From positions 2,170,001-2,234,000 of the forward strand of contig NZ_AP018920.1 in the NCBI RefSeq assembly GCF_003945385.1: DNA of 64,000 nucleotides, written 5' to 3'. Below are positions 47,795-63,636 of the stretch, piece after piece. The position numbers were made by a program, and so were the translations under genes. How positions within the stretch are numbered: position 1 is the first letter of the stretch; the number at the start of each line of letters is the position of its first letter. This DNA is from Pseudonocardia autotrophica. GTDB taxonomy: Bacteria; Actinomycetota; Actinomycetes; Mycobacteriales; Pseudonocardiaceae. Below the pieces are notes generated by a model. The model was not told the DNA's origin. It ran no database searches and saw only the letters and a list, made by a program, of their open reading frames with translations.

Positions 47795-48271
47795 GTGCTC
47801 GTGTCATCGGAGGAGCGTCGCGGTGCGGGGGCCGGCAGCAGCGGGTCGACGGCGTCGTCGTCGGGTCCGCGGTCGGCTGGTGGTCCGTCGCCGCGTCCGT
47901 CGCGTAGGTCGTTCAGCGCGGAATACAAGCTGGCGATCGTCGCGGAGTATGAGAACGCGCCGAACGGTGAGAAGGGCGCGGTCCTGCGCCGGGAGGGCCT
48001 GTATTCGTCGCACGTGATCGAGTGGACCCGGGCCCGGGACGTCGGCGCGCTGGAGGGCGTAGCCGATTCGAGGCGGTCGGCGAAACGTCCGAAGCGGTCG
48101 GCGGAGGCGGCCGAGTTGGAACGGCTCCGGGCCCGGAACGCGAAACTCGAATCCGACCTGACGAAGACGCGGACCGCGTTGGACATCATGGGAAAAGCGC
48201 ACGCGCTCTTGGAGCAGCTGTCCGAGAGCGCGGACGACCAGGAACCACCGGCGCCGCGGAAGCGGCGTTGA
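47795..48271 (+). CDS. IS3-family transposase OrfA
   Basis: This 158-residue protein has an N-terminal Ser/Gly-rich stretch, a helix-turn-helix (FSAEYKLAIVAEYENAPNGE ... LRREGLYSSHVIEW) and a leucine-zipper-like coiled coil (ELERLRARNAKLESDLTKTR). OrfA binds the IS ends. It starts at GTG 47795. Its stop overlaps the OrfB start codon. Confidence 0.9.
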   Translation: MLVSSEERRGAGAGSSGSTASSSGPRSAGGPSPRPSRRSFSAEYKLAIVAEYENAPNGEKGAVLRREGLYSSHVIEWTRARDVGALEGVADSRRSAKRPKRSAEAAELERLRARNAKLESDLTKTRTALDIMGKAHALLEQLSESADDQEPPAPRKRR

Positions 48272-49278
48272 ACGGCGCGTTCACCGAGTTGCGCGCCGCT
48301 GAGGTGTCGATCAAGGCGGCGTGCGCGTTGACCGGTCGGTCGCGGGCCACGCACTACCGCCGCGCCGACCCGGCGGGGGTGACGCTCGGGCCGCTGCACG
48401 GCCCGCACCGTGCGCGCCGGCTCCCGCCCTCGACGATCACCGACGACGAGCGTGCCGCCGTGCTCGCGCTGCTGAACTCCGAGGACTACCGGGATCTGGC
48501 CATTCCGCAGGTGTGGGCCCGGGAGCTCGACGAGGGCCGGTGGTGGTGCTCGCAGTCGAGCATGTACCGGATCGCCCGCGCAGCGGGTCAGAACCGGGAA
48601 CGGCGCGCCCAGGCCACGCATCCGCCGCGGGTGCGCCCGGAGCTGGTCGCTCATGGCCCGAGCGAGGTGTGGTCGTGGGACATCACCGCGCTGAAGGGCC
48701 CGCGGAAGGGCGAGTGGTACAAGCTGTATGTGGTGCTCGACATCTTCTCCCGCTACGTAGTCGGATGGCTCGCCGCGAACGCTGAGGATGCCGTCGTGGC
48801 GAAGGATTTCCTCGCCGACGCAGTCGCCCGCAACCACGTCATCCCGCAGACGATTCATGCCGACCGGGGCGGGTCGATGACCTCGAAACCGGTATCGGAG
48901 CTGATGGTCGATCTCGGTATCTGCCGGTCACATTCCCGGCCGCAGTGCTCGAATGACAACCCGTTCTCCGAGGCGCAGTTCAAGACGCTGAAGTACGTGC
49001 CGGACTTCCCGGACCGGTTCGGCTCGCTCGCTGATGCCCGCGCGTTCTGCGAGCGGTTCTTCGAGCACTACAACCACGAGCATCGGCACTCCGGCATCGG
49101 CATGCACACCCCGGCGTCGATCCACTTCGACACCGCGACCGAGGTCCGGGCTCAGCGTCAGACCGTCCTCGACCGCGCACACGCCCAGTATCCCGAGCGA
49201 TTCAGTCGCCGGCCCAGCCCGCCGCGCCTGCCCGAGCAGGCGTGGATCAATCAACCCGTCCTACAGCCAACTCAGTAA
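48268..49278 (+). CDS. IS3-family transposase OrfB (DDE integrase)
   Basis: This 336-residue protein has a complete catalytic triad: Asp138 in WSWDITAL, Asp199 in IHADRGG and Glu235 in NPFSEAQFKT, with the 35-residue DD(35)E spacing. It may start at TTG 48268, overlapping the OrfA stop, or be made as an OrfAB fusion by a -1 frameshift near the end of OrfA. The frame is intact, so the element may still be active. Confidence 0.92.
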   Translation: MNGAFTELRAAEVSIKAACALTGRSRATHYRRADPAGVTLGPLHGPHRARRLPPSTITDDERAAVLALLNSEDYRDLAIPQVWARELDEGRWWCSQSSMYRIARAAGQNRERRAQATHPPRVRPELVAHGPSEVWSWDITALKGPRKGEWYKLYVVLDIFSRYVVGWLAANAEDAVVAKDFLADAVARNHVIPQTIHADRGGSMTSKPVSELMVDLGICRSHSRPQCSNDNPFSEAQFKTLKYVPDFPDRFGSLADARAFCERFFEHYNHEHRHSGIGMHTPASIHFDTATEVRAQRQTVLDRAHAQYPERFSRRPSPPRLPEQAWINQPVLQPTQ

Positions 49279-51819: not shown

Positions 51820-52596
51820 TCAGCCGGACCGGTACCCCAGCGCCTGCGACGCGGCCGCGGTCGCGGCCCGCAACAGGTCCAGCAGCCGGTCGAGCTCCGA
51901 GTCGGGCAGGTGTGCCGTGAGCCCGCTGATGCTGAGTGCCGCCACGACGTGGTCCTCGTGGTCGCGGACCGCCCCGCTGAGCGCGCGGACGCCGACCTCG
52001 ACGTCGTCCTCGCTCATGGCGTAGCCCGCCGACCGGATCTGCGCGACCTGGTCACGCAGCGCGGTGGGGGAGGTGTGCCGCGACGAGGTCGGGACCATCA
52101 GCCCGCGCAGATAGGTCTCGACCTGGTCGTCGGGCAGCGAGGCGAGCAGCAACCGCGGGCCGGCGCCCCTGTGCAGCGGCAGTGCCCCACCGACCCGCAG
52201 TATGTGGGTGGCCGCGTAACGACCGTCGAGGCGTTCGACGCAGACCGCCTCGTCGCCGCGCGGGATCAGCAGGAAGATGGTCTCGCCGGTGGCGCGGTAC
52301 AGCTCCTGCATGGCGGGCAGCGCCCGCTCGCGGACCCCCATCCGGCGGGCCATGGCGCTGCCGATGCGGAACGCGCCGATCCCCAGCCGGTAGGTGCCGG
52401 GGGAGGAGCGCTCGACGAAGTCGCCCGCGGCGAGCGTGTGCAGGATCCGGTAACAGGTGCTCTTGTTGAGATCGAGCCGGCCGGCGATCTCGCCGAGGCT
52501 GATCGGCTCGGACTCCTCGGCCAGCAGGTCGAGCACCGACATCGCCTTGACCAACACCCGGACCGGTTCACCGGTGGACGGGGCCTTCTCCGACAT
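51820..52596 (-). CDS. IclR-family transcriptional regulator
   Basis: This 258-residue protein has an N-terminal winged helix (ISLGEIAGRLDLNKSTCYRILHTL, residues about 32-55) and the IclR ligand domain (GYAMSEDDVEVGVRALSGAVRD). It is the last gene of the leftward operon; its ATG directly follows the kinase stop. It is the only regulator in the 51.8-63.6 kb cluster. It likely binds the two inverted repeats at 57089 and 57244 between the divergent promoters. Confidence 0.9.
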   Translation of the reverse strand: MSEKAPSTGEPVRVLVKAMSVLDLLAEESEPISLGEIAGRLDLNKSTCYRILHTLAAGDFVERSSPGTYRLGIGAFRIGSAMARRMGVRERALPAMQELYRATGETIFLLIPRGDEAVCVERLDGRYAATHILRVGGALPLHRGAGPRLLLASLPDDQVETYLRGLMVPTSSRHTSPTALRDQVAQIRSAGYAMSEDDVEVGVRALSGAVRDHEDHVVAALSISGLTAHLPDSELDRLLDLLRAATAAASQALGYRSG

Positions 52597-53592
52597 TCAG
52601 CCGACCTCCGCGCCCGACGCCGTCCCGGACGGGCGGACCCTACCGTCCGCGGTGCCGCTTGCGGTGCCGTGGGCGTCGCGCAGGGCCAGCGTGGAGGGCA
52701 GGTCGCGGATCCCGGCGTCGGAGCCCAGCCCCTGGGCGACCTGGGCGGCGGCGGCCGTCCCGAGCCGGGCCGCGTCGAGGAGGGACTCTCCGCGCAGCCG
52801 GCCCACGAGGAAGCCTGCGGTGAACGCGTCCCCGCAGCCGGTCGTGTCGATCACCGCCACCTCGTGCGCGGGGACCCGGGTGGTGCCGTCGCCGGAGCAC
52901 ACCAGGGCACCGTCGGCGCCGCAGGTCACGATGACCGTGCCGGTGCCCGCCCGCCGGACGGTCCCGGCTGCGTCGACCAGGTCGTCGGTGCCGATGAGGG
53001 AGCGCAGCTGGTCGTCGTTGGGCAGGAAGTGGTCGACCAGCGGCCACAGCGTCGCGAGCTCGTCGAACAGCCCGTCGCGGCCGACGCTGAGCAGATCCAT
53101 CGAGACCGTCGTGGCGTGCGCGCGGGCGTGCCGCAGGACGGTCGGCAGCCCGTCGACGGTGAAGTCCCCGAGCACGTCCGGGCCGCCGACGTGCAGGACG
53201 TCGGCGGCGGCGACCAGATCGAGATCGACGTCGGCGAGGGTGAGCCGGCCCATCGCCCCCGGGGCGTGCAGGGCGGGCCGTTCACCGTTCGGGCGTACCG
53301 GCAGGATCGTCGACGGCGTGGCCTGCCCGGCCCGGACGGCCAGCCCGCTGGTGTCGACGCCGTGCTCACCGAGCAGCTCGCGGAGCAGCCTGCCGGACAC
53401 GTCGTCGCCGATCGGGCCGATGCCGGTCACCTCGGCACCGAGCTTGGCGAGGTCGACGGCGGTGCCCCCGGCGGTCCCGGCGGCGGTCACCCGGATCTCG
53501 TCGAGGACCCGCCGCCCCTGACCCGGTGGGATGTCCACGACCGGCCGGCCCAGTACATCGAGGATGTGTGCGCCGAGACAGACGATCCTCAC
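52597..53592 (-). CDS. PfkB-family sugar kinase
   Basis: This 331-residue ribokinase-type kinase has the N-terminal MRIVCLGAHILDVLGRPV, the GG segment TAAGTAGGTAVDLAKLGA and the catalytic signature DTTGCGDAFTAGFLVGRL near residue 260. It would phosphorylate a sugar or polyol at a primary hydroxyl. GTG 53592 overlaps the aldolase stop by four nt. Next to a class II aldolase, it suggests phosphorylation followed by cleavage to a C3-phosphate, or of the imported substrate after amide cleavage. The C-terminal about 25 residues are low complexity. Confidence 0.9.
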   Translation of the reverse strand: MRIVCLGAHILDVLGRPVVDIPPGQGRRVLDEIRVTAAGTAGGTAVDLAKLGAEVTGIGPIGDDVSGRLLRELLGEHGVDTSGLAVRAGQATPSTILPVRPNGERPALHAPGAMGRLTLADVDLDLVAAADVLHVGGPDVLGDFTVDGLPTVLRHARAHATTVSMDLLSVGRDGLFDELATLWPLVDHFLPNDDQLRSLIGTDDLVDAAGTVRRAGTGTVIVTCGADGALVCSGDGTTRVPAHEVAVIDTTGCGDAFTAGFLVGRLRGESLLDAARLGTAAAAQVAQGLGSDAGIRDLPSTLALRDAHGTASGTADGRVRPSGTASGAEVG

Positions 53593-54233
53593 CGTGCCGC
53601 CCTCCGTGCCGCCACCGCGGCGAGATCCCGTTCGTCCAGGGTGTGCGGCGTCCCGACCGACGCCGCGACGATGTAGAGCCGGCACAGCCACTCGATCAGC
53701 CCGGCCCGATCGGCCGCCTCCTCCAGCGTCGCCCCGTAGGCGACCGCGCCGTGGTTGCGCATCAGCGCCGCCGAGCGGTCGACCAGCGCGGCGCCCACCG
53801 CGTCGGCCAGCTCCGGAGTGCCGTAGGTGGCGTACGCGGCGACCCGGGGCGGGCCGCCGAGCCGGCCCACGTAATAGTGCACGGCCGGGAGCACGTCGTG
53901 CAGCAGGGAGACCGCGACGCTGTGCAGGCCGTGATGGTGCACGACGGCCCCGGCGTCCGTGCCGCGGTACACCAGCAGGTGCAAGGGCGTCTCCGACGAC
54001 GGGCTGTGCGGGCACTCGACCGGCTCGCCGTCGAGATCGACCACGCACACGTCATCCGGGCCGATCCGGTCGTAGGCGATCCCCGACGGCGTGATCGCCA
54101 CCAGGTCACCGACCCGCATGCTCACGTTGCCCGCGGTCCCGGTGACCAGCCCTTCGGCGACCATCGAGAGCCCGGCGCGGGCCACGGCGGCGCGGGCGGC
54201 GTCGATCCCGCCGGTGGCCGACGGCCCGTTCAT
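53589..54233 (-). CDS. Class II (Zn) aldolase, fuculose-phosphate-aldolase-like
   Basis: This 214-residue FucA/adducin-fold enzyme has Glu81 in SSETPLH, the metal ligands His99 and His101 in VVHHHG, and His161 in RNHGAV. This matches Glu73, His92, His94 and His155 of FucA. It would split a ketose- or acid-phosphate into DHAP and an aldehyde, or act as a decarboxylase. Start 54233 overlaps the ABC ATPase stop by ATGA. It is part of a fully overlapped leftward operon. Confidence 0.9.
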   Translation of the reverse strand: MNGPSATGGIDAARAAVARAGLSMVAEGLVTGTAGNVSMRVGDLVAITPSGIAYDRIGPDDVCVVDLDGEPVECPHSPSSETPLHLLVYRGTDAGAVVHHHGLHSVAVSLLHDVLPAVHYYVGRLGGPPRVAAYATYGTPELADAVGAALVDRSAALMRNHGAVAYGATLEEAADRAGLIEWLCRLYIVAASVGTPHTLDERDLAAVAARRAAR

Positions 54234-55330
54234 CCGATGCTCGCGGTGTCGGCAGTGGCCTGCCCGTCGGGCAGCAGGACACCGGCCCCGGCCGGCCAGC
54301 ACAGCGCCACCCGGTCGCCCGCGGCGACCGCGGTCTCCGAGGTCGCGTCGCGAACCATGCCCTGGCCGCCGTCGTCGAACCGGACCAGCACACGCCGGAA
54401 GGCCCCCTGGTAGACGACGTCGGTGACGGTGGCGGAGAGCTGGTTCGTGCCGGTCGCCCGGTGCTCGTCGCCGGTGCTGATCCGCATCCGCTCCGGGCGC
54501 ACGACCAGCGACGACGGGCCGTCCGGGCCGGTGCAGTGCAGGGTGGCGGAACCGGTGTCGAGCAGGCCGTCGCGTGCGGTCCCGGTGAAGACGTTCGAGT
54601 CGCCGAGGAAGGTGGCGACGAAGTGCGTCGCCGGGCTCTCGTACAGCTCCGACGGCGTGCCGACCTGTTCGATGTGCCCGTCGCGGAAGACCGCGATCCG
54701 GTCGGAGAGCGCCAGCGCCTCCTCCTGGTCGTGGGTGACGAACACGAACGTGATGCCCAGCTCCGAGTGCAGCCGGGAGATCTGCAGCTGCAGCGACTCG
54801 CGCAGCTTCTTGTCCAGCGCGCCGAGCGGCTCGTCGAGCAGCAGCACGCGGGGGGAGAACACCACCGCCCTGGCCAGCGCGACCCGCTGCTGCTGGCCGC
54901 CGGAGAGCTGCCCGGGAAGACGGTCCCCGTGCCCCTCGAGATGCACCAGCGCCAGCGCCTCCCGCACCCGTTGCGCGATCTCGGCCCGGGGGACCCGGCG
55001 CTGCCGCAGCGGGAAGGCGATGTTGTCCGCCGCGGTCATGTGCGGGAACAGCGCGTAGTTCTGGAAGACCATGCCCAGGCCGCGCTTGTGTGGTGGGAGC
55101 CGGGCGATGTCGTCGCCGTCGAGCAGGATCCGCCCGGAGGTGACCTCCTCGAACCCGGCGATCATGTTGAGCGTGGTCGTCTTGCCCGATCCGCTCGGGC
55201 CGAGCAACGTCATGAACTCGCCGGCCCGGATCTGCAGGTCGATGCCGGCCACGGCCGGGGCCGAGGCCCCGCGGTAGGTCTTGGTGAGCGCTTCGACGTC
55301 GATGCCGGCGCCACCGGCCTGGTCAGACAC
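54230..55330 (-). CDS. ABC transporter ATPase, PotA-like
   Basis: This 366-residue ATPase has Walker A GPSGSGKTT (residues about 43-51), signature LSGGQQQRVALARA, Walker B VLLLDEPLGALD and a C-terminal TOBE domain. It is of the spermidine/putrescine or Fe(III) group. It powers the two permeases encoded upstream. An 8-nt overlap joins it to the permease gene. The substrate is probably the compound attacked by the dimethylformamidase-like enzyme encoded on the other operon. Confidence 0.92.
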   Translation of the reverse strand: MSDQAGGAGIDVEALTKTYRGASAPAVAGIDLQIRAGEFMTLLGPSGSGKTTTLNMIAGFEEVTSGRILLDGDDIARLPPHKRGLGMVFQNYALFPHMTAADNIAFPLRQRRVPRAEIAQRVREALALVHLEGHGDRLPGQLSGGQQQRVALARAVVFSPRVLLLDEPLGALDKKLRESLQLQISRLHSELGITFVFVTHDQEEALALSDRIAVFRDGHIEQVGTPSELYESPATHFVATFLGDSNVFTGTARDGLLDTGSATLHCTGPDGPSSLVVRPERMRISTGDEHRATGTNQLSATVTDVVYQGAFRRVLVRFDDGGQGMVRDATSETAVAAGDRVALCWPAGAGVLLPDGQATADTASIG

Positions 55331-56114
55331 GGGATGACCTCCTGCGGGTGAGCCCGGCGAGGCCGAGCAGGACGGTGGACACGACGAGCACGACCGTGGA
55401 CGCGGCCGCGATGGTGGGGTCGACCTCGTTGGTCACCGACGTGAACATCCGCACCGGCAGGGTCTGCAACTGCGGCGACTGGATGAACAGGGAGACCACC
55501 ACCTCGTCGAACGAGGTGACGAAGGCGAACAGGGCACCGGCGCCCACCCCGGGCCGGATGATCGGGAAGGTCACCTGGCGGAAGGTCGCCCAGGACGACG
55601 CGCCCAGGCCCGCCGCGGCCCGTTCCAGTACCGGATCGACCGCACTGAGGGCGGCCGTCACGTTGACCACGACGAACGGCAGCGCCAGGACGGTGTGGGC
55701 CAGCACGAAGCCGGTGGGCGTGCCGATCAGGCCCCAGCCGAGGAAGGTCGCGTACAGCGCGACCGCGACCACGATGCCGGGCACGATCAGCGGCGCCAGG
55801 AACAGCCCGTCCAGCGCCCGCTTGGCCCGGAACCGGCTGCGCGCCAGCGCGACCGATGCGGCGGTACCGAGCACGGTCGCCACCACCGTGACGATCAGCG
55901 CGAGCTGCAGGGACACCAGCAGCGAGTTCAGCCAGCTCCGCTCGGTGAAGAACCGCACGTAGTGCCCGACACCCCAGGACGACGGCGGGAACGCGAAGCT
56001 GTTCTCGCCGGAGAAGCTGATCGGCACGACGATCAGGGTCGGGACGACGAGCCAGATCCCCACCAGGACGCCGAGCACGGCGAGGGTACGCCGCAACAAC
56101 ACACCGTCGGTCAT
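55323..56114 (-). CDS. ABC transporter permease, PotC-like
   Basis: This 263-residue protein has six membrane helices and the EAA loop ERAAAGLGASSWATFRQVTFPII (residues about 160-182). It opens with an N-terminal helix LAVLGVLVGIWLVVPTLIVV. It forms a heterodimer with the PotB-like permease encoded just before it, to which it is joined by an ATGA overlap. Confidence 0.92.
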   Translation of the reverse strand: MTDGVLLRRTLAVLGVLVGIWLVVPTLIVVPISFSGENSFAFPPSSWGVGHYVRFFTERSWLNSLLVSLQLALIVTVVATVLGTAASVALARSRFRAKRALDGLFLAPLIVPGIVVAVALYATFLGWGLIGTPTGFVLAHTVLALPFVVVNVTAALSAVDPVLERAAAGLGASSWATFRQVTFPIIRPGVGAGALFAFVTSFDEVVVSLFIQSPQLQTLPVRMFTSVTNEVDPTIAAASTVVLVVSTVLLGLAGLTRRRSSRV

Positions 56115-57043
56115 GACACACCCCCGGCGACGCCGCTGCTGATGCCGCCGCCGCGGCCGCCCCTGGTCCGGGTGAGCACCTGCACCGCGCCGAGCAGCAG
56201 CAGCGTGACCAGCAGCAACGTCACGGCCAGCGCACCGGCCGCCCCGAAGTTCACCAGCTGGTTCACCTGGACCGAGATGAACTGGGCCAGCATCGACTGC
56301 TGCGGTGACCCGACCAGGGCCGGGGTCACGTAGAAGCCCAGCGAGAGCACCATCACCAGCGTCGCTCCGGCGGCGACGCCGGGGAACGACAGCGGCAGGT
56401 ACACCCGTGCGAAGGCCACCGCCGGGCGGGCCCCCAGCGACTGTGCGGCGGCCACCAGCCTGCGGTCGATGCCGCGCATCGCGGTGTACACCGGCAGCAC
56501 CACGAACGGGAGCATCACCTGCGCCATGGCCAGCGCGACGCCGGTGGTCGTGCCGAGCATGCGGACCGGCCCCACCCCGGCCACGGTCAACAGCTGGTTA
56601 ACGATCCCGTTGTCCTGCAACAACACCACCCAGGCGAAGGTGCGCGCCATCAGCGATGTCCAGAACGGGATGAGCACGACGGCCAGCAGCAGCGCCCGCC
56701 ACCTGCGCGTCACGATCGTCATCAGGTAGGCGTACGGGTAGGCGACCAGCACGCAGACCACCGTGACGATCGCCGCCGTGCCGAGCGTGCGCAGCACGAC
56801 GGTGAGGGTGACGTCGTCGGCGACGATCGCGGCGTAGTTGCCCAGCCCGGGTTCCGGCGTGGTGACCGAGAGCCAGAGCAGTCGCACCGCGGGGACCACG
56901 AAGAAGATCAGCAGCACCAGGAGTGCGGGGAGCGCGGCGAGCAATATCAGCCGCCCGGCCGCCCACCGGGGCCGGCCACGGCGGTCCCGACCCGGATCGG
57001 GTGGGGTCCGGGGTGTCCGTGTCGAGGGCGTGGTCACGGCCAT
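56111..57043 (-). CDS. ABC transporter permease, PotB-like
   Basis: This 310-residue protein has six membrane helices and the EAA loop LVAAAQSLGARPAVAFARVY (residues about 192-211). A charged N-terminal tail precedes the first helix (LILLAALPALLVLLIFFVVP). It is the first gene of the leftward operon, so its promoter lies in the 243-nt divergent region. It should work with the lipoprotein encoded at 57287. Confidence 0.92.
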   Translation of the reverse strand: MAVTTPSTRTPRTPPDPGRDRRGRPRWAAGRLILLAALPALLVLLIFFVVPAVRLLWLSVTTPEPGLGNYAAIVADDVTLTVVLRTLGTAAIVTVVCVLVAYPYAYLMTIVTRRWRALLLAVVLIPFWTSLMARTFAWVVLLQDNGIVNQLLTVAGVGPVRMLGTTTGVALAMAQVMLPFVVLPVYTAMRGIDRRLVAAAQSLGARPAVAFARVYLPLSFPGVAAGATLVMVLSLGFYVTPALVGSPQQSMLAQFISVQVNQLVNFGAAGALAVTLLLVTLLLLGAVQVLTRTRGGRGGGISSGVAGGVS

Positions 57044-57088
57044 CGGGGTCCCTCTCGGTCGGCCGACATGTCGCGGACTATGGATCGC

Positions 57089-57105
57089 GTTTCACGAAGT
57101 GGAAC
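57089..57105. promoter_or_regulatory. Inverted repeat GTTTC-N7-GGAAC near the leftward promoter
   Basis: GTTTCACGAAGTGGAAC lies 46 nt upstream of the permease start codon. It resembles the site at 57244 in half-site sequence and 7-nt spacing. The form fits an IclR-type operator. Confidence 0.6.
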
Positions 57106-57243
57106 GTAACCGTGCTCAGTCCCGGCGATGATGTCAAGGGCGTCGATCGCCTGTAATGCAGCCGAAACACCTGCGCGGGGCAATCCGGGTGCGTCTTGAC
57201 GGCGATCCGTCCGACCCTCCATGCTTTCTGCATTGTGAACGTT

Positions 57244-57260
57244 GTTTCAGAATACGAAAC
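57244..57260. promoter_or_regulatory. Inverted repeat GTTTC-N7-GAAAC near the rightward promoter
   Basis: GTTTCAGAATACGAAAC is a perfect 5+5 inverted repeat 26 nt upstream of the binding-protein start. A TTGACG at 57196-57201 is a possible -35 box, which would put this site just downstream of the transcription start. Its partner is at 57089. Confidence 0.65.
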
Positions 57261-57286
57261 GCGTCGTCGAATCCAGAGGTGATCGA

Positions 57287-58339
57287 ATGCGAATCCGCCG
57301 CAGTGCCCTCACCGTTGCCGCACTGGCGTCCGTCGTCGGGCTCACCGCAACGGGCTGCTTCGGACAGGTCGGGTCCTCGGCCGCCGGGGACGGATCGACC
57401 GTCGTCTTCGCCAACACCGGCGGCGCGCTGGCCGAGGTCTTCGCGGCCAACGCCTACGTCGAGCTGGAGGCCGAGGGGGTGACGGTCGCCGAGGAGTCGC
57501 CGAACAACGAGGCGAAGCTGACCGCGATGGTGCAGGCCGGCGCCCCCACCTGGGACGTCTTCTACTCCGCGCCCTACATCGCCCAGGGGCGCTGCGGGAC
57601 GCTGTTCGAGGAGATCGACTTCGACCGCGTCGACACCGAGGGCCTCGACCCGGACCAGATGTCCCCCTGCGGCGTCCCGGTGCTCAACTCCTCGTTCCTG
57701 CTCGTCTACAACACCGAGACCTACGGCGACAACCCGCCCACGAGCTGGGCGGACTTCTTCGATCCCGCGGCGTACCCCGGCGCGCGGGGGATCATGAACT
57801 ACGCCAAGGACGCCGGCATGGAGGCCGCGCTGCTCGCCGACGGAGTGCCCGGCGACCAGCTGTACCCGCTGGACTACGACCGTGCCTTCGCCACGCTGGA
57901 CGGGATCCGGGACTCGGTGCGGTTCTTCGACACCGGAGCCCAGCAGACCCAGGCACTGGAGTCCGGCGAGGTCGACATGATGCTGGCCTGGCCCGGCCGC
58001 GCCTACGACGCGAAGGCCGCCGGCGCGCCGATCGACGTCGTCTGGAACCAGCCGCTGAAGTACTTCGACGTCCTGACGATCGTCAAGGGTGCGCCCCACC
58101 AGGAGCAGGCCTACCAGCTGATCAACAGCCTGATCGGGCAGCAGAACCAGGAGGCGATCGCGAACCGGATGCCCTACGGCCCCTCGAACTCGACGGCGGC
58201 GCCGAGCTCGGACCCGGGGATCGCGGAGTTCGTGGACGGCCCGCAGTCGGCTGGCAGCACCGTGGTCCGCGACGACGCCTGGTGGGCCGAGAACCTCGAC
58301 GAGGCCACCCGGCGCTGGACGGACTGGGTGAACCGATGA
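57287..58339 (+). CDS. ABC transporter substrate-binding lipoprotein, PotD-like
   Basis: This 350-residue protein has a lipoprotein signal peptide: MRIRRSALTVAALASVVGL then a cysteine in TATGCFG (residue 25). The mature part is a periplasmic-binding-protein fold of the PotD/SBP_bac_8 group (VVFANTGGALAEVF; NNEAKLTAMVQAGAPTWDVFY; LNSSFLLVYNTETYG). ATG 57287 follows AGAGGTG. It is split from its permeases by the divergent promoter region and its stop overlaps the next enzyme gene, so uptake and degradation are coordinated. Confidence 0.9.
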   Translation: MRIRRSALTVAALASVVGLTATGCFGQVGSSAAGDGSTVVFANTGGALAEVFAANAYVELEAEGVTVAEESPNNEAKLTAMVQAGAPTWDVFYSAPYIAQGRCGTLFEEIDFDRVDTEGLDPDQMSPCGVPVLNSSFLLVYNTETYGDNPPTSWADFFDPAAYPGARGIMNYAKDAGMEAALLADGVPGDQLYPLDYDRAFATLDGIRDSVRFFDTGAQQTQALESGEVDMMLAWPGRAYDAKAAGAPIDVVWNQPLKYFDVLTIVKGAPHQEQAYQLINSLIGQQNQEAIANRMPYGPSNSTAAPSSDPGIAEFVDGPQSAGSTVVRDDAWWAENLDEATRRWTDWVNR

Positions 58340-60501
58340 GGATCGTCGGCTACGCCGACCGGTTGTCGGTGACCGCGGGCGACGAGATCGGGTTCCGCTG
58401 CTCCACCGACCATCCCGAGCTCGTCCCGGAGCTGGTCCGGCTGCGCCGCGGGGGAGGGGACCGGCACGACCGTCCGCTCGTCGAGGAGCCGGTGCCGCAC
58501 GACCTCCCGGGAACCGTCCCGGGGCGCATCCAGCACACCACGTCGGGCTCCTACGTGTCGGCGTCCGCGCAGCGCACCGAGCCCGGTCTCGGAATCGCAC
58601 TCTGGTTCCGCCCGACCCGGCCCGGCACCCGGGCGCGACCGTTGCTGACCGTCGGAGCCGTCACCCTTGCCGCCGCGGACGGTGAGATCTCGCTGCGGGT
58701 CTCCGACCGGACCGTCCTGCGGGCACCGGCCGGCACGATCGCGCACCGGTGGGCGTTCGCCGCCGCGACCCTCGGCGCCGACGGCACCGCGCGACTGGAG
58801 GTGTACCCGCCGGACGCGCCGATGGTGGCCGTGCAGGGGACCGCGGAACCGGTGACCGCGACCGGGCCGGTGCTGATCGGCTCCGACGGGTCCCGGCCGG
58901 CCGGGCCCGGCCGGACCTTCGACGGCGCGGTCGCCCGCCCCGTGGTGTCCACCGCGTGGGAGCCCGCGGTGACCCGGCAGCTCGCCGGCGGGGCCGATCC
59001 GCTCACCCTGCTCGATCCCGCCACGACCAGCGCACTGGATCTCGCCGCCGATCCCGGCGGAACCACGGTGCCCGACCGTGGCGGGCTGACCGCGGGCGGG
59101 ACGGTGCACCATCTTCCGGCCCGCGGCGTGCCGGGCCCGTTCTGGACCGGCGCCGAACGCGATTTCCGGGCCGCGCCCGCCGAGTTCGACGCCGTGCACC
59201 TGCACGAGGACGACCTGGCGGACGCGGGCTGGGACACCGACCTCACCTGGGCGGTGCCCGACGACCTGGCGAGCGGGGTGTACGCGCTCAAGCTCACCGC
59301 CGGCGACGACGTCGACCGGATCCCGGTCGTCGTCACTCCCCGCCGGCACGTCGCGCCGACCCTGGTGGTGCTGCCGACCTGGACCTACCTCGCGTACGCG
59401 AACTGGCGGACCTACGCCGAGTTCGAGACCGAGCGGCTGGGCATCTACGGCGAGAACCGCGGGATCGACGAGCGCGATCGCTGGCTCGTCGCGCATCCCG
59501 AGTTCGGCCGGTCGCTCTACGACACCCACGACGACGGCAGCGGGGTCTGCTATTCGTCGCGGCTGCGGCCGATCGTGAACATCCGCCCCGACTACTACAC
59601 GCCGACCACCCGCGGGTTCCGGCACTACGCCCAGGATCTGCTGTTGCTCGACTGGCTGGATCGGCGGGGCGAGCACTACGCGGTCGTCACCGACGACGAG
59701 ATCGACGCCCACGGGGCCGACCTGCTCCGGCACTACCGCGTCGTGCTCACCGGGGCGCACCCGGAGTACTGCTCGGCCGCGATGCTCGACGCCTACGCGG
59801 ACTACACCGGCTCCGGTGGCCGGCTGATGTACCTGGGCGGCAACGGTTTCTACCAGGTCACCGCCCGGCACCGCGGCCCCGGCGACGCGATCGAGATCCG
59901 CCGCGGGCACGCCGGCGTCGCGACGTGGGTGTCGGCACCCGGTGAGGAGCACCTGGCGGCGACCGGCGAACCGGGCGGCCTGTGGCGGATGCGCGGCCGC
60001 GCCCCGAACACGCTGGTGGGGGTCGGCTTCACCGCCCAGGGTTTCGACCGCGGATACGGGTACCGGCGTACCGGGGAGAGCGACGACCCGCGGGTGGCGT
60101 GGGCCTTCGACGGCGTACGGGCCGATACCGGGGAGATCTTCGGCGACGTCGGCCCCGGCCTCGGCGGTGCCGCCGCCGACGAGTTCGACCGCGCGGACAC
60201 CGCACTCGGCACCCCGGCGGACGCGGTCGTGCTGGCCTCGTCGGTGGGGCACTCCGAGCGGATCGCGCTGGTGCCCGAGGAGATCGACCACGGCTACGCG
60301 GCCGCACCACCGGGGGTGCACCCGAAGGTCCGGGCCGACGTCGTCCTGTTCGGACGCCCCGGCGGCGGCGCGGTGTTCTCGGTGGGCTCGATCGGCTGGT
60401 CCACCGCGATGACCCATGACGACGGCGACAACGACACCGCGCGGATCACGGGCAACGTGCTCGACCGGTTCCGCGACACACCCGGCGAGGTCCTGTCGTG
60501 A
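58336..60501 (+). CDS. N,N-dimethylformamidase large-subunit-like protein
   Basis: This 721-residue protein resembles the large (beta) subunit of N,N-dimethylformamidase (762 residues). It has a jelly-roll/LamG-like domain at about 80-205 (GIALWFRPTRPGTRARPLL) and the catalytic domain at 340-720 (LVVLPTWTYLAYANW; SLYDTHDDGSGVCYSSRL; TGAHPEYCS). The known enzyme binds iron by two Tyr and one Glu; Tyr351 or Tyr354, Tyr395 and Glu477 are candidates here. No small-subunit gene is seen. It probably hydrolyses an amide or another C-N bond of the imported compound, releasing an acid and an amine. Confidence 0.82.
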   Translation: MRIVGYADRLSVTAGDEIGFRCSTDHPELVPELVRLRRGGGDRHDRPLVEEPVPHDLPGTVPGRIQHTTSGSYVSASAQRTEPGLGIALWFRPTRPGTRARPLLTVGAVTLAAADGEISLRVSDRTVLRAPAGTIAHRWAFAAATLGADGTARLEVYPPDAPMVAVQGTAEPVTATGPVLIGSDGSRPAGPGRTFDGAVARPVVSTAWEPAVTRQLAGGADPLTLLDPATTSALDLAADPGGTTVPDRGGLTAGGTVHHLPARGVPGPFWTGAERDFRAAPAEFDAVHLHEDDLADAGWDTDLTWAVPDDLASGVYALKLTAGDDVDRIPVVVTPRRHVAPTLVVLPTWTYLAYANWRTYAEFETERLGIYGENRGIDERDRWLVAHPEFGRSLYDTHDDGSGVCYSSRLRPIVNIRPDYYTPTTRGFRHYAQDLLLLDWLDRRGEHYAVVTDDEIDAHGADLLRHYRVVLTGAHPEYCSAAMLDAYADYTGSGGRLMYLGGNGFYQVTARHRGPGDAIEIRRGHAGVATWVSAPGEEHLAATGEPGGLWRMRGRAPNTLVGVGFTAQGFDRGYGYRRTGESDDPRVAWAFDGVRADTGEIFGDVGPGLGGAAADEFDRADTALGTPADAVVLASSVGHSERIALVPEEIDHGYAAAPPGVHPKVRADVVLFGRPGGGAVFSVGSIGWSTAMTHDDGDNDTARITGNVLDRFRDTPGEVLS

Positions 60502-60533
60502 CCGGCGCCGGCCATCACCGAGGGGGACCTCCC

Positions 60534-61379
60534 GTGCCCACACCCACGCCCACGCCCGCACCGGTGCCGACGCAACGTCTGGCCGACCGTGCGCTGTTCG
60601 TGCGCACCGAGACCGTGCGGCTGACCCGGATCGCCGGCGCCGGGCACTACAGCGCCGTGTTCTCCTGTGCCGAGATCCTCGCCGCGCTCTACTACTCGGA
60701 GCTGCGGATCGACCCGGCCCGGCCGGACTGGGCCGATCGCGACCGGTTCGTCATGAGCAAGGGGCACGCGGCGATCGGGCTCTACCCGGTGCTGGCCGAT
60801 CTCGGCTACTTCGATCCCGAACTGCTCGACGACTACACCCGGCTGGGCAGCGCGTTCGGCGACCACCCGGACATGAAGCGGATCCCGGGGATCGACTTCT
60901 CCTCCGGATCGTTGGGCCACGGTCTGTCGATCGGGGTCGGCATGGCCTGGGCAGGCCGGCACGCCGGCAGCGACCACCGCACCTGGTGCCTGCTCGGCGA
61001 CGGCGAGCTGGCCGAGGGCCAGATCTGGGAGGCCGCGATGGCCGCTGCGCACTTCGGGCTGGGCGATCTCGTCGCCGTGGTCGACAACAACCAGCTGGGT
61101 ATCGACGGGTTCGTCGCCGACATCATGCCCGCCGAGCCGGTCGAGGAGCGATTCGCCGCCTTCGGCTGGGACACCCACCGCGTCGACGGCCACGATCTCG
61201 ACGTGCTGCGGGCCACGTTCGCGGCGCTGCCCGGCCGAGGCGGTGACCGGCCCCAGCTGATCGTGGCCGACACGGTCAAGGGCAAGGGCGTGGCCCGGAT
61301 GGAGCTGAGCCCGGACTGGCACGTCGGCAACCTGGCCGGTGCCGACTTCGACGACGTGATGACGGAGCTGAACCGGTGA
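60534..61379 (+). CDS. Transketolase, N-terminal (thiamine-diphosphate) subunit
   Basis: This protein of about 281 residues has the ThDP motif LLGDGELAEGQIWEA followed by DNNQ, and RFVMSKGHAAIGLYPVL upstream. GTG 60534 has GAGGGGGA before it; GTG 60498 overlapping the previous stop would add a short tail. It forms a heterotetramer with the C-terminal half encoded next. Split transketolases are common in specialised pathways and transfer two-carbon ketol units. It belongs to the rightward operon. Confidence 0.9.
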   Translation: MPTPTPTPAPVPTQRLADRALFVRTETVRLTRIAGAGHYSAVFSCAEILAALYYSELRIDPARPDWADRDRFVMSKGHAAIGLYPVLADLGYFDPELLDDYTRLGSAFGDHPDMKRIPGIDFSSGSLGHGLSIGVGMAWAGRHAGSDHRTWCLLGDGELAEGQIWEAAMAAAHFGLGDLVAVVDNNQLGIDGFVADIMPAEPVEERFAAFGWDTHRVDGHDLDVLRATFAALPGRGGDRPQLIVADTVKGKGVARMELSPDWHVGNLAGADFDDVMTELNR

Positions 61380-62410
61380 CCGCACAGGACCAGTCGGAGA
61401 TCTTCAACGGCACGGCGGCGGTCGGATTCGCCGACTCCCGCTCGACCGACGGAACCGACACCCGGGCGATCCCGGCGTTCGTCTTCGGCGAGGAGCTCGG
61501 CGTGCTCGCCGACGACGATCCGCGGATCGTGGTGCTCACCGCCGATCTCGGCCGCTCCAACCGGGCGACCGACTTCGCCCTGCGCCATCCCGACCGGTTC
61601 GTCAACGTCGGGATCGCGGAGAAGAACATGGTGACCGTGGCCGCCGGGATGGCGGCCTCGGGGCTCGTGCCGTTCGCGGCGACCTTCGGCTCGTTCGCGG
61701 CGCTGCTGTGTGCCGAGCAGATCCGGACCGACTGCGCCTACCCGAACCTGCCGGTGCGGGTGGTCGGCCACCACTCCGGCATGTCGATGGGGTTCTACGG
61801 CACCAGCCACCACAGCCTCGAGGACCTCGCGATGATGCGCTGCATCGCCGACCTCACCGTCGTGTGCGCCACCGACGCCAACCATCTGCGTGCGCTGCTG
61901 CGGCTCTCCCTCGACCACGAGGGCGCCATGTACCTGCGGCTGGGCCGCGGCCGGGATCCCGAGGTGTACCCCGAGGTGCCCGACCTGCAGCTCGGCCGCG
62001 CCGAGCTGGTGCGCGAGGGCAGCGACCTGACCGTCGTCGCGACCGGCTCGACGGTGCACCCGGCGCTCGTCGCGGCCGATCAGCTCGCCGCCGACGGCCA
62101 CTCCGTGCGGGTGCTGGACATGTGGACGGTCTCCCCGCTGGACCACGCCGCGCTGGCCGCCGCGGCCCGGGAGACCGGGGCACTGCTCACCGTGGAGGAG
62201 GCCAACGTGACCGGCGGGCTCGGATCGGCGGTGGCCGAGTCGCTGTCCGACGCGGGCCTGGCCGTGCCGTTGCGCCGGCACGGTGTGCCCGACGAACACG
62301 TCCCGGTGGGCCCGCCGGCCGCCCTCTACGCGCACTACCGGCTCGACGGCGACGGCATCGCCGCCGTCGCCCGTGAACTGCTCGACACCCGAACCCGGAG
62401 GAACGCATGA
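61376..62410 (+). CDS. Transketolase, C-terminal (pyrimidine-binding) subunit
   Basis: This 344-residue protein carries the pyrimidine-binding domain (VVLTADLGRSNRATDFA; VNVGIAEKNMVTVAAGMAASG, with the catalytic Glu) and the C-terminal domain (VLDMWTVSPLDHAAL; LLTVEEANVTGGLGSAV). It starts at GTG with a 4-nt overlap. With its partner it could be a transketolase or a DXS-like enzyme; the sequence favours transketolase. Confidence 0.9.
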   Translation: MTAQDQSEIFNGTAAVGFADSRSTDGTDTRAIPAFVFGEELGVLADDDPRIVVLTADLGRSNRATDFALRHPDRFVNVGIAEKNMVTVAAGMAASGLVPFAATFGSFAALLCAEQIRTDCAYPNLPVRVVGHHSGMSMGFYGTSHHSLEDLAMMRCIADLTVVCATDANHLRALLRLSLDHEGAMYLRLGRGRDPEVYPEVPDLQLGRAELVREGSDLTVVATGSTVHPALVAADQLAADGHSVRVLDMWTVSPLDHAALAAAARETGALLTVEEANVTGGLGSAVAESLSDAGLAVPLRRHGVPDEHVPVGPPAALYAHYRLDGDGIAAVARELLDTRTRRNA

Positions 62411-63636
62411 CCGCCGTCCAGCCGACCCTCGGCGCCGGTGAACGCGCACTGCGCGACCGGGCCCGCCAGGTCATCCCCGGAGGCATGTACGGGCACATGA
62501 ACGTCGCGGCCTTCAGCGCGGCGCACCCGCAGTTCATGGTCTCCGGCAACGGGGCCACGGTGGTCGACGCGGACGGCCGGGAGTACCTCGACCTGATGTG
62601 CAGCTGGGGCCCGATGATCCTCGGGCACGGCCATCCCACGGTGACCGCGGCGATCACCGAGCAGCTGCGGCACGGCGACTGCCTCGACGGGACCAGCCCG
62701 GTCGCCGTCGAGTACGCCGAGCTGCTGGTCGACACGATCCCGTCGGCGGACTGGGCGCTGTTCTGCAAGAACGGGAGCGATGCGGTCACCACCTGCGTGA
62801 CCACCGCGCGTGCGGCGACCGGCCGTCGCAAGGTACTGGTCGCTCGCGGTGCCTATCACGGCGCCGTACCGTGGTGCGCGCTGCGCGGTGAGGGGATCAC
62901 CGAGTCCGACCAGGCCCATCTGATCCACTACGAGTACAACGACCTCGGTTCGGCCGAGGCGGCGGCCGCCGAGGCCGGCGACGATCTCGCGGCGATCGTC
63001 GTCTGCCCGATGCGGCACGACGTCAAGCGGGACCAGGAGCTGGTGGACCCGGCGTTCGCCCGCGGACTGCGGACGCTCGCCGACCGGACCGGCGCGGTAC
63101 TGGTGCTCGACGACGTCCGCTGCACCCACCGGCTGGACCTGGGCGGCAGCTGGGAACCGCTCGGGGTGCGGCCCGATCTGGCGGCCTACTCGAAGCCGCT
63201 GGCCAACGGCCAGCCCCTCGGCGCCGTCACCGGCTCCGACGCGCTGCGCGACGCGGTCGGCTCGATCTACGTGACCGGATCGTTCTGGACCGGGGCCGTG
63301 CCGCTGGCCGCCGGCCTCGCCACCCTGACCGAGCTGCGCCGCGGCGAGGCCCTCCCCGTCATGGAGCGGGCCGGGCAGCGGCTGCGCGACGGCTTGGCGG
63401 CGCAGGCGCTGACGCACGGGTTCGGGATCCACCAGAGCGGGCCGGTGCAGATGCCGATGCTGTCGTTCACCGGTGACGAGAACTTCCGGCTGGCGACGGC
63501 CTGGGCGGAGGCGGCCGCCCTGCGGGGCGTGTACCTGCACCCGTGGCACAACTGGTTCCTGTCGGCGGCGCACACCGACGAGGTGATCGACGACATCCTG
63601 CAGCGCACCGACGGGGCGTTCGCCGCGCTCCGCTGA
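62407..63636 (+). CDS. Class III aminotransferase, glutamate-1-semialdehyde-aminotransferase-like
   Basis: This 409-residue PLP enzyme has Lys263 (AAYSKPLANGQPLGA) as Schiff-base lysine and Asp235 in LVLDDVRC for the pyridine nitrogen. FCKNGSDAVTTCVTTAR binds the phosphate. It resembles HemL-type enzymes but sits in a catabolic operon, so it likely transaminates an aldehyde or ketone intermediate. It starts with an ATGA overlap and is the last gene of the rightward operon, followed by a perfect terminator. Confidence 0.88.
   Translation: MTAVQPTLGAGERALRDRARQVIPGGMYGHMNVAAFSAAHPQFMVSGNGATVVDADGREYLDLMCSWGPMILGHGHPTVTAAITEQLRHGDCLDGTSPVAVEYAELLVDTIPSADWALFCKNGSDAVTTCVTTARAATGRRKVLVARGAYHGAVPWCALRGEGITESDQAHLIHYEYNDLGSAEAAAAEAGDDLAAIVVCPMRHDVKRDQELVDPAFARGLRTLADRTGAVLVLDDVRCTHRLDLGGSWEPLGVRPDLAAYSKPLANGQPLGAVTGSDALRDAVGSIYVTGSFWTGAVPLAAGLATLTELRRGEALPVMERAGQRLRDGLAAQALTHGFGIHQSGPVQMPMLSFTGDENFRLATAWAEAAALRGVYLHPWHNWFLSAAHTDEVIDDILQRTDGAFAALR

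What the first reader, a model, noticed from the sequence alone, without database searches (positions are those of the whole stretch)
51820..63636. Divergent IclR-linked cluster with amide hydrolase, kinase, aldolase, split transketolase and its own transporter
Two operons are divergent from a 243-bp control region, and nearly all genes overlap or abut. They encode a PotABCD-like transporter, a dimethylformamidase-like C-N hydrolase, a PfkB kinase, a Zn aldolase, both transketolase halves, an HemL-like aminotransferase and IclR. I know of no described pathway with this set. It suggests import of an amide-linked sugar or polyol, hydrolysis, phosphorylation, aldol cleavage and ketol transfer. 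The domain calls are from sequence; the pathway is inference.
Basis: partly seen in the sequence, partly recalled or inferred. Interest (0 to 1): 0.8.

Follow-up and report, generated by a model that had tools for sequence, protein, structure and literature searches.

The report
Gene cluster for degrading unknown amide
A soil actinobacterium carries a self-contained, conserved set of eleven genes that looks built to import an amide, cut it, strip off its nitrogen and split the remaining sugar-like piece, and related sets in distant bacteria suggest a breakdown route that may not have been described.

Summary
In detail: eleven genes form two divergent operons around a 243-bp region, with tightly packed junctions. 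They are a conserved unit: all eleven occur in seven other Pseudonocardiaceae loci, and the six enzymes plus IclR persist where the transporter is missing (L144). I add a palindromic motif, RTTTC-N7-GRAAY, found twice in this control region and in 16 of 17 related ones.

It is closest to FumI, which deaminates the C2 amine of hydrolysed fumonisin; FumI falls inside its tree. Of 92 neighbourhoods of this aminotransferase, 85 hold a transketolase, sugar kinase or E1-like gene; 22 hold an amide hydrolase of the families tested.

Best reading: an N-acylated amine with HOCH2-CH(NH-)-CH(OH)-R is imported, deacylated by the iron amidase, transaminated to a dihydroxyketone, and split either by an altered transketolase (the D469 position of E. 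coli TktA is Tyr in 25 of 25 actinobacterial split pairs linked to this gene) or by kinase plus FucA-like aldolase. Order and substrate class are inference; the substrate is unknown. My paper searches showed no such pathway. Likely a new combination of known enzyme families.

The parts
51820..52596 (-). IclR-family regulator, presumed controller of both operons
   Evidence: Pfam IclR_C and HTH_IclR; best NCBIfam model BhcR at 159 bits, far below its cut-off of 350; beside the kinase gene in L001, L004, L012 and L141-L144, L146
52597..53592 (-). PfkB-family sugar kinase, presumed to phosphorylate the CH2OH next to the ketone
   Evidence: Pfam PfkB; best NCBIfam model IolC, 111 bits, below cut-off 300; GTG start overlapping the aldolase stop
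53589..54233 (-). class II (FucA-like) aldolase, presumed ketose-1-phosphate aldolase
   Evidence: Pfam Aldolase_II; E. coli FucA E73, H92, H94, Y113, H155, N29, S71, S72 conserved, but no residue aligned to Y209
54230..55330 (-). PotA-like ABC transporter ATPase
   Evidence: NCBIfam TIGR01187 potA 386.8 bits, above cut-off 355.6
55323..56114 (-). PotC-like permease
   Evidence: Pfam BPD_transp_1; closest NCBIfam PotC, below cut-off
56111..57043 (-). PotB-like permease
   Evidence: Pfam BPD_transp_1; closest NCBIfam PotB, below cut-off
57044..57286 (.). divergent control region of 243 bp
   Evidence: gap between permease start and SBP start
57089..57105 (.). operator-like palindrome 1, RTTTC-N7-GRAAY
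   Evidence: pattern search; 8 other loci also hold two sites
57244..57260 (.). operator-like palindrome 2, upstream of the SBP start
   Evidence: the two starts are 151-164 bp apart in the 9 loci with two sites
57287..58339 (+). lipoprotein solute-binding protein
   Evidence: SBP_bac_8; lipobox-like ATGC ending at residue 24; closest solved sequence is 4eq7/4euo, the GABA binder Atu4243 by PMC6829864 (passages), then proteins named for mannopine and agropine
58336..60501 (+). dimethylformamidase-like iron amidase (large-subunit type)
   Evidence: DMFA2_C 291 bits; DmfA2 residues Y399, Y440, E521, H519, N547, E657 conserved
60498..61379 (+). transketolase N-terminal half (start may be 60564)
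   Evidence: Transketolase_N; closest solved: split transketolase 6yak
61376..62410 (+). transketolase C-terminal half with Tyr at E. coli D469
   Evidence: Transket_pyr and Transketolase_C; closest solved 6yaj; residues
62407..63636 (+). FumI-like class III aminotransferase
   Evidence: Aminotran_3; 6hbs FumI 380 bits, next 171; FumI nested in its tree

Best explanation
A self-contained catabolic module for an N-acylated amine that bears the head group HOCH2-CH(NH-CO-R')-CH(OH)-R. The lipoprotein SBP and PotABC-like importer bring the amide in. The dimethylformamidase-like iron enzyme hydrolyses it inside the cell. The FumI-like aminotransferase passes the amine to an oxo acid, probably pyruvate, and leaves the dihydroxyketone HOCH2-CO-CH(OH)-R. 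This ketol is then split in one of two parallel ways: the two-chain transketolase removes the C1-C2 ketol unit and releases R-CHO, or the PfkB kinase phosphorylates the CH2OH next to the ketone and the FucA-like aldolase yields dihydroxyacetone phosphate (or decarboxylates, if R is a carboxylate). IclR controls both operons through palindromes in the control region. Shown here: gene content, conservation, presence of most catalytic residues, kinship to FumI, shared palindromes. Inferred: order of steps, head group, acceptor, and that IclR binds the palindromes. Unknown: R and R'.
For: Unit: all eleven genes in L001 (SBP moved to beyond the aminotransferase), L004, L012 and L141, L142, L143, L146, with varied genes outside. 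Aminotransferase: 45.8% identical to FumI over 400 aa; in the tree FumI joins three plasmid homologues at 100/100, inside the family. FumI moves the C2 amine of an amino polyol to pyruvate (PMC2933618, passages). Alanine dehydrogenase lies near the aminotransferase in 4 of 80 loci. Ketol logic: of 92 neighbourhoods, 21 hold transketolase, 75 a PfkB or 3-oxo-tetronate-type kinase, 5 an E1-like fusion; 85 hold at least one. The kinases' best models are IolC (window, L015, L123; all below cut-off) or 3-oxo-tetronate kinase (above cut-off in L039 and L115, below in L117); both act, as I recall, on a CH2OH beside a ketone. Amide logic: amide hydrolases of unrelated families sit beside the aminotransferase in 22 of 92: DMF-like in 16, amidase in 7, penicillin acylase in 5 (one DMF-like, L049, is a 30% match at the edge without a Pfam hit). 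A Rhizobium plasmid (L116) has a PotABCD-like transporter, two DMF-like genes, split transketolase and aminotransferase. Residues: iron ligands, H519 and N547 in 22 of 22 DMF-like rows, the Paracoccus reference counted, E657 in 21; E73, H92, H94, H155, Y113 in 49 of 49 aldolase rows, FucA counted. D469 is absent in 28 of 28 aminotransferase-linked transketolases examined (Tyr 25, Leu 2, Asn 1), while E. coli TktA and two of the own genome keep it. D469 changes open E. coli transketolase to aromatic aldehydes (PMC5073344, passages). Regulation: 26 of 28 one-strand motif matches in 401 kb lie in the control regions.
Against: No substrate, activity or expression data. Transketolase and aldolase cut different bonds: FucA chemistry needs a C4 hydroxyl, whereas loss of D469 suggests none, so one substrate may not suit both. 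The two proteobacterial transketolase pairs also differ at E. coli H26, H100 and H461, and two split transketolases without the aminotransferase have Gly at D469, so that change is not unique; whether R358 is lost depends on the alignment (gap, Arg, Ala). In 7 of 92 neighbourhoods no splitting gene was found (L010, L020, L062, L068, L080, L120, L121; some are short), and 70 of 92 show no amide hydrolase of the families tested, among them the bulk of the Streptosporangiaceae loci. The 92 were picked by similarity to the aminotransferase and most come from one family, so they are not independent. The motif was defined on the same related regions in which it was counted. NCBIfam scores of the window's kinase, aldolase and SBP are below all cut-offs. 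Kinship of the SBP to GABA and opine binders suggests a small polar ligand.
Confidence: 0.5

Rival explanations
1. R carries or is a carboxylate: the compound is an N-acyl beta-amino-alpha-hydroxy acid such as a 3-amino-2,4-dihydroxybutanoyl unit of a small peptide-like compound. The ketone is then 3-oxo-tetronate or a near relative, decarboxylated or split to dihydroxyacetone phosphate, or cleaved by transketolase to glyoxylate and a ketol.
For: 3-oxo-tetronate kinase above cut-off beside the aminotransferase in L039 and L115; peptide-type importer genes in 15 of 92 neighbourhoods; solved relatives of the hydrolase include an N-acyl-beta-amino-acid acylase; SBP Arg in 18 of 18 and Asp in 17 of 18 at places that I recall as the GABA contacts; tandem DMF-like genes in several loci could cut two amides.
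Against: The kinase of L117 is below that cut-off, and the aldolases of L039 and L115 score higher with FucA-type models than with 3-oxo-tetronate 4-phosphate decarboxylase. I know of no such compound in quantity.
Confidence: 0.25
2. The module degrades sphingoid-type compounds or analogues: kinase and aldolase take the 4-hydroxylated (phyto) form, transketolase the form without a 4-hydroxyl, releasing a long-chain or aromatic aldehyde.
For: FumI acts on hydrolysed fumonisin, a sphinganine-like amine, and is nested in this family; a sphingosine-1-phosphate-lyase-like gene lies in the same neighbourhood in 5 Blastococcus loci; penicillin-acylase-type enzymes there; D469 loss suits a hydrophobic aldehyde.
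Against: GABA/opine-type SBP in the window and no signal peptide seen by eye on the hydrolase; no lyase-like gene in the window cluster; sphingosine use in Pseudomonas depends on sphBC, other enzymes (PMC11893366, passages).
Confidence: 0.15
3. One reading: an amide-linked sugar or polyol, with the aminotransferase as a side step and phosphorylation, aldol cleavage and ketol transfer in series.
For: Sugar-type kinase, FucA-like aldolase and transketolase in one unit; SBP relatives are named for mannopine and agropine.
Against: Seen from the aminotransferase, transketolase and kinase/aldolase come and go separately (the aminotransferase is constant there by design of the search); transketolase lacks D469.
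Confidence: 0.15
4. A chloramphenicol-type aryl amide is the substrate; transketolase releases the aromatic aldehyde.
For: Chloramphenicol has the HOCH2-CH(NH-CO-)-CH(OH)-aryl head (recalled); D469-type changes admit aromatic aldehydes.
Against: The chloramphenicol cluster proposed for Nocardia testacea uses other enzymes: GMC oxidoreductase, hippurate hydrolase, L-threonine aldolase (PMC13400229, passages). Kinase and FucA-like aldolase would have no role.
Confidence: 0.04

Closest known systems
FumI, aminotransferase of fumonisin-degrading Sphingopyxis
   Same: Same class III family; FumI nested among the related aminotransferases; amino alcohol to hydroxyketone, pyruvate as acceptor
   Different: 46% identity; FumI works after a carboxylesterase, not an amidase (PMC4843849, passages); substrate of the window enzyme unknown
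N,N-dimethylformamidase / N-acetyl-(R)-beta-phenylalanine acylase
   Same: DMFA2_C domain, iron ligands and catalytic residues of DmfA2
   Different: No small-subunit gene next door in the window; surrounding genes quite different
Sulfoquinovose sulfo-transketolase pathways (PMC11659671, title and abstract start only)
   Same: Cleavage of an unusual ketose, with two splitting routes (transketolase and transaldolase) side by side
   Different: No amide or amine step named there; sequence kinship not tested
IolC/IolJ and OtnK/OtnC steps (inositol, tetronate catabolism)
   Same: Kinase on a CH2OH beside a ketone, then cleavage to dihydroxyacetone phosphate (recalled); IolC and OtnK are the best kinase models
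   Different: Window kinase far below the IolC cut-off; ketone presumed to come from transamination
Chloramphenicol chd cluster of Nocardia testacea
   Same: Actinobacterial, IclR-controlled, amide plus amino diol (passages)
   Different: Oxidation, hippurate hydrolase and threonine aldolase; no transketolase or aminotransferase is mentioned in the text

Membership tests
FumI-type aminotransferases | class III fold and nearest to FumI among solved enzymes | tested here: met
   380 bits against FumI, 171 for the next; tree
FumI-type aminotransferases | deaminates hydrolysed fumonisin with pyruvate | not testable with these tools
   needs assay
Dimethylformamidase family (DMFA2_C) | two Tyr and one Glu iron ligands, His519, Asn547, Glu657 | tested here: met
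   residue roles from PMC7686228 passages
Dimethylformamidase proper | partner small subunit gene next door | tested here: not met
   DMF gene overlaps the SBP and transketolase genes directly
FucA-type class II aldolase | zinc ligands H92, H94, H155, acid E73 and phosphate-site residues | tested here: met
   (residue roles recalled)
FucA-type class II aldolase | C-terminal Tyr209 | tested here: inconclusive
   no residue aligned in the window protein
L-fuculose-phosphate aldolase equivalog | score above curated cut-off | tested here: not met
   123 bits against 400 (TIGR01086)
Transketolase | His 26, 66, 100, 261, 461, 473 and Glu411 of E. coli TktA | tested here: met
   20 of 20 rows beside E. 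coli
Ordinary pentose-phosphate transketolase | substrate residue D469 | tested here: not met
   Tyr
Ordinary pentose-phosphate transketolase | phosphate-site residue R358 | tested here: inconclusive
   gap, Arg, Ala
PotABCD polyamine importer | ATPase above the potA cut-off | tested here: met
   386.8 against 355.6
PotABCD polyamine importer | PotD-type binding protein above cut-off | tested here: not met
   55.6 against 582 bits; nearer GABA and opine binders
Glutamate-1-semialdehyde aminomutase (HemL) | score above hemL cut-off | tested here: not met
   205 against 527 bits

The most novel reading that the evidence does not exclude
A widespread, undescribed catabolic strategy for N-acylated 2-amino-1,3-diols: amidase, FumI-like transaminase, then exchangeable ketol-splitting modules (D469-less transketolase, kinase plus aldolase, or E1-like dehydrogenase), found in Actinomycetota and Pseudomonadota; FumI of fumonisin degraders is one recruited offshoot.
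Probability: 0.4. Interest if true: 0.75.

Novelty: new variant of a known kind. Interest (0 to 1): 0.58.

Why it matters
If right, it gives the FumI family, known to me only from mycotoxin removal, a natural setting, and predicts natural transketolases for aldehydes without an alpha-hydroxyl, which engineers have obtained by mutating E. coli transketolase. It also offers a compact, testable operon pair with its own regulator, importer and candidate operator, and points to an unrecognised class of amides used by bacteria of two phyla.

Tried and rejected
A chloramphenicol reading was followed and set low because the cluster proposed in Nocardia uses other enzymes. A plain polyamine reading was set aside because the binding protein is far below the PotD cut-off and nearer GABA and opine binders. 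HemL membership was rejected. A search for papers with at least three of transketolase, aminotransferase, pfkB, class II aldolase and dimethylformamidase gave 26 papers, of which I saw the listing of 20, none about such a cluster by title and abstract start. A search for sphingoid-base breakdown with an aminotransferase gave six papers, of which I read passages of one. Both cover the held PubMed Central library only. I hoped to meet the fumonisin cluster in the plasmid collection; the fumI-like hit in Novosphingobium, L123, holds class II aldolase, aminotransferase, PfkB-like kinase and P450, not an esterase-led cluster. I first took loss of D469 as a mark of aminotransferase-linked transketolases, and loss of R358 with it; two split transketolases elsewhere have Gly at D469, and R358 depends on the alignment, so D469 is supporting, not diagnostic, and R358 is dropped. 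A phylum-wide search with the transketolase C half found this type in the own genome and, at 47-49% identity, in two others of the 396 searched, neither near the aminotransferase in the stretches held. No structure was predicted.
Full report
Observation. With the starts used here, the nine junctions inside the operons overlap by 4-8 bp (8) or abut (1); the start of the transketolase N half is uncertain. Pfam confirms the families. The window lies in a genome of 7.5 Mb in two contigs. Genomes listed as the same genus match Pseudonocardia loci by coordinates (for example G662 and L006, P. acaciae), so I take the host to be a Pseudonocardia.

A conserved unit. One scan with the aminotransferase gave 80 loci, the best of 229. 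All eleven genes are present in L001, L004 and L012 (IclR is cut by the edge in L004 and L012, and in L001 the SBP lies beyond the aminotransferase with a second DMF-like gene) and in L141, L142, L143 and L146, fetched from genomes of the same family. L002, L007 and L011 show all but IclR, and L003, L005, L006, L008 and L009 all but IclR, kinase and aldolase; in these the held stretch ends there. L144 keeps the six enzymes and IclR, but no SBP, permease or ATPase was found in its 19 kb; an MFS gene lies near. L014 (Actinomadura) has everything but kinase and aldolase. L010 keeps an aminotransferase, a piece of the transketolase C half and a piece of IclR. In the family, 20 of 390 genomes have the aminotransferase at E<=1e-100, 18 of them, the own one counted, at 77% identity or more: a scattered, accessory trait. 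Several loci carry two DMF-like genes.

Regulation. The pattern RTTTC-N7-GRAAY occurs at two places in the window, both in the control region; shuffles give 0.12 matches on average (one site is counted on both strands). In 18 control regions examined, the window's included, 9 have two sites with starts 151-164 bp apart, 8 have one, and L014 none; 26 of the 28 matches on one strand of those 18 sources (401 kb) lie in these regions. Gapped 5-mer pairs of this form are shared by up to 13 of 15 regions against at most 4 in 20 base shuffles. The regions are related by descent and the pattern was defined on them, so the counts overstate the case. That IclR binds the sites is inference.

The enzymes look intact. 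DMF-like proteins: Y399, Y440, E521, H519 and N547 in 22 of 22 rows including the Paracoccus reference, E657 in 21; Y399, Y440 and E521 bind the iron, and mutants of Y440, E521, H519, N547 and E657 were inactive (PMC7686228, passages). Aldolase: E73, H92, H94, H155 and Y113 in 49 of 49 rows including FucA (roles recalled). Transketolase: six histidines and Glu411 in 20 of 20 rows beside E. coli.

The aminotransferase. It is 45.8% identical to FumI, which it matches with 380 bits against 171 for the next solved relative. In a tree of 55 rows FumI groups with L120, L121 and L123 at 100/100, among the related aminotransferases; four paralogues of the own genome fall outside. Several rows, FumI included, have long branches, and some deeper forks are weakly supported. 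FumI moves the C2 amino group of hydrolysed fumonisin B1 to pyruvate (PMC2933618, passages). Alanine dehydrogenase lies near the aminotransferase in L017, L019, L049 and L064 (3 of 92 under the coverage rule).

Variants. I tallied 92 neighbourhoods: the 80 loci and 12 plasmid loci (L122 was left out as a 41% relative in an unlike setting, and hit H9 was not fetched). Transketolase is found in 21, PfkB kinase in 68, 3-oxo-tetronate-type kinase in 7, aldolase in 53, E1-like fusion in 5; 85 hold at least one of transketolase, kinase or E1 fusion, and 7 none. DMF-like genes are in 16, amidase in 7, penicillin acylase in 5; 22 hold at least one of these and 70 none. The 92 are heavily weighted to Streptosporangiaceae and are not independent. 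Telling cases: Blastococcus with amidases, gamma-glutamyltranspeptidase and a sphingosine-1-phosphate-lyase-like enzyme in 5 loci, penicillin acylase in 4; Nocardioides with transketolase, kinase, aldolase, aldehyde dehydrogenase and peptide importer; Mycolicibacterium L013 with transketolase, alcohol and aldehyde dehydrogenases but no kinase or aldolase in the held 21 kb; Pseudoroseomonas with DMF-like gene, amidase, aldolase and 3-oxo-tetronate kinase; Variovorax with split transketolase, amidase and penicillin acylase; Rhizobium L116 with PotABCD-like importer, two DMF-like genes, split transketolase and aminotransferase. In L145 a canonical-type transketolase gene lies next to a 65% aminotransferase, without the rest of the cluster.

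What the variants say. The aminotransferase is the constant part by design of the search; around it amide hydrolases of different origin and splitting enzymes of different origin recur. Transketolase without kinase/aldolase and the reverse both occur, so I read them as alternatives. All of these enzymes act on a ketol: transketolase needs HOCH2-CO-CH(OH)-R, IolC- and OtnK-like kinases phosphorylate a CH2OH beside a ketone, FucA-like aldolases release dihydroxyacetone phosphate (established chemistry, recalled). A transaminase makes such a ketol from HOCH2-CH(NH2)-CH(OH)-R. Hence the proposed order: import, deacylation, transamination, splitting.

Hints about R. The residue at E. coli D469 is Tyr in 25 of 25 actinobacterial split pairs linked to the aminotransferase (20, 5), Leu in the two proteobacterial pairs and Asn in L145, while E. 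coli TktA and two transketolases of the own genome keep Asp. R91, its salt-bridge partner in E. coli (passages), is Thr in the 20 pairs. Changes at D469 admitted aromatic aldehydes in E. coli transketolase (PMC5073344, passages); the split Carboxydothermus enzyme takes phenylacetaldehyde without the engineered D469E change (PMC7661550, passages). Against: the proteobacterial pairs also differ at H26, H100 and H461, two split enzymes not near the aminotransferase have Gly at D469, and the state of R358 depends on the alignment. The SBP keeps an Arg in 18 of 18 and an Asp in 17 of 18 at positions that I recall as the carboxylate and amine contacts of the GABA binder Atu4243, which suggests a small charged ligand. 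These hints do not agree on one compound, so I leave R open.

Verdict. Searches for a paper with this set or for related chloramphenicol or sphingoid routes showed no match to it in what I saw of their listings. Families are all known; the combination and probably the substrate class are new.

Noticed in passing
L148, L149, L150: Other Pseudonocardia genomes carry a second, related system: 52-54% identical aminotransferase, BetI-like TetR (by eye) and peptide importer; L149 and L150 also hold PfkB and aldolase. In L149 a P450, a 2Fe-2S ferredoxin and a PucR-type regulator lie beside them; L150 has look-alikes that were not scanned. A P450 also sits beside the Novosphingobium cluster L123.
   Followed up: partly
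L001, L005, L006, L008, L009, L141, L142, L146: Two DMF-like genes, about 55-58% and 70-74% like the window's, differ at the place aligned with DmfA2 F693 (not done for L141-L146), which suggests two amide specificities.
   Followed up: partly
L010:9080-11230: Apparent remnant: piece of IclR abutting a piece of transketolase C half and a full-length aminotransferase, as if an internal deletion removed the rest; it is a metagenome bin, so misassembly is possible.
   Followed up: no
L122:9399-16627: A distant aminotransferase relative (41%) on a Streptomyces plasmid sits beside adenosylhomocysteinase, cupin and pitrilysin-family genes, which looks biosynthetic.
   Followed up: no
window 47795-49278: ORFs that look by eye like an IS3-type transposase lie about 2.5 kb from the IclR end of the cluster, in a stretch of 69% G+C against 68-77% across the cluster.
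   Followed up: no
L123:13104-16248: A sphingomonad plasmid holds aldolase, aminotransferase and PfkB kinase side by side; its aminotransferase groups with FumI.
   Followed up: partly
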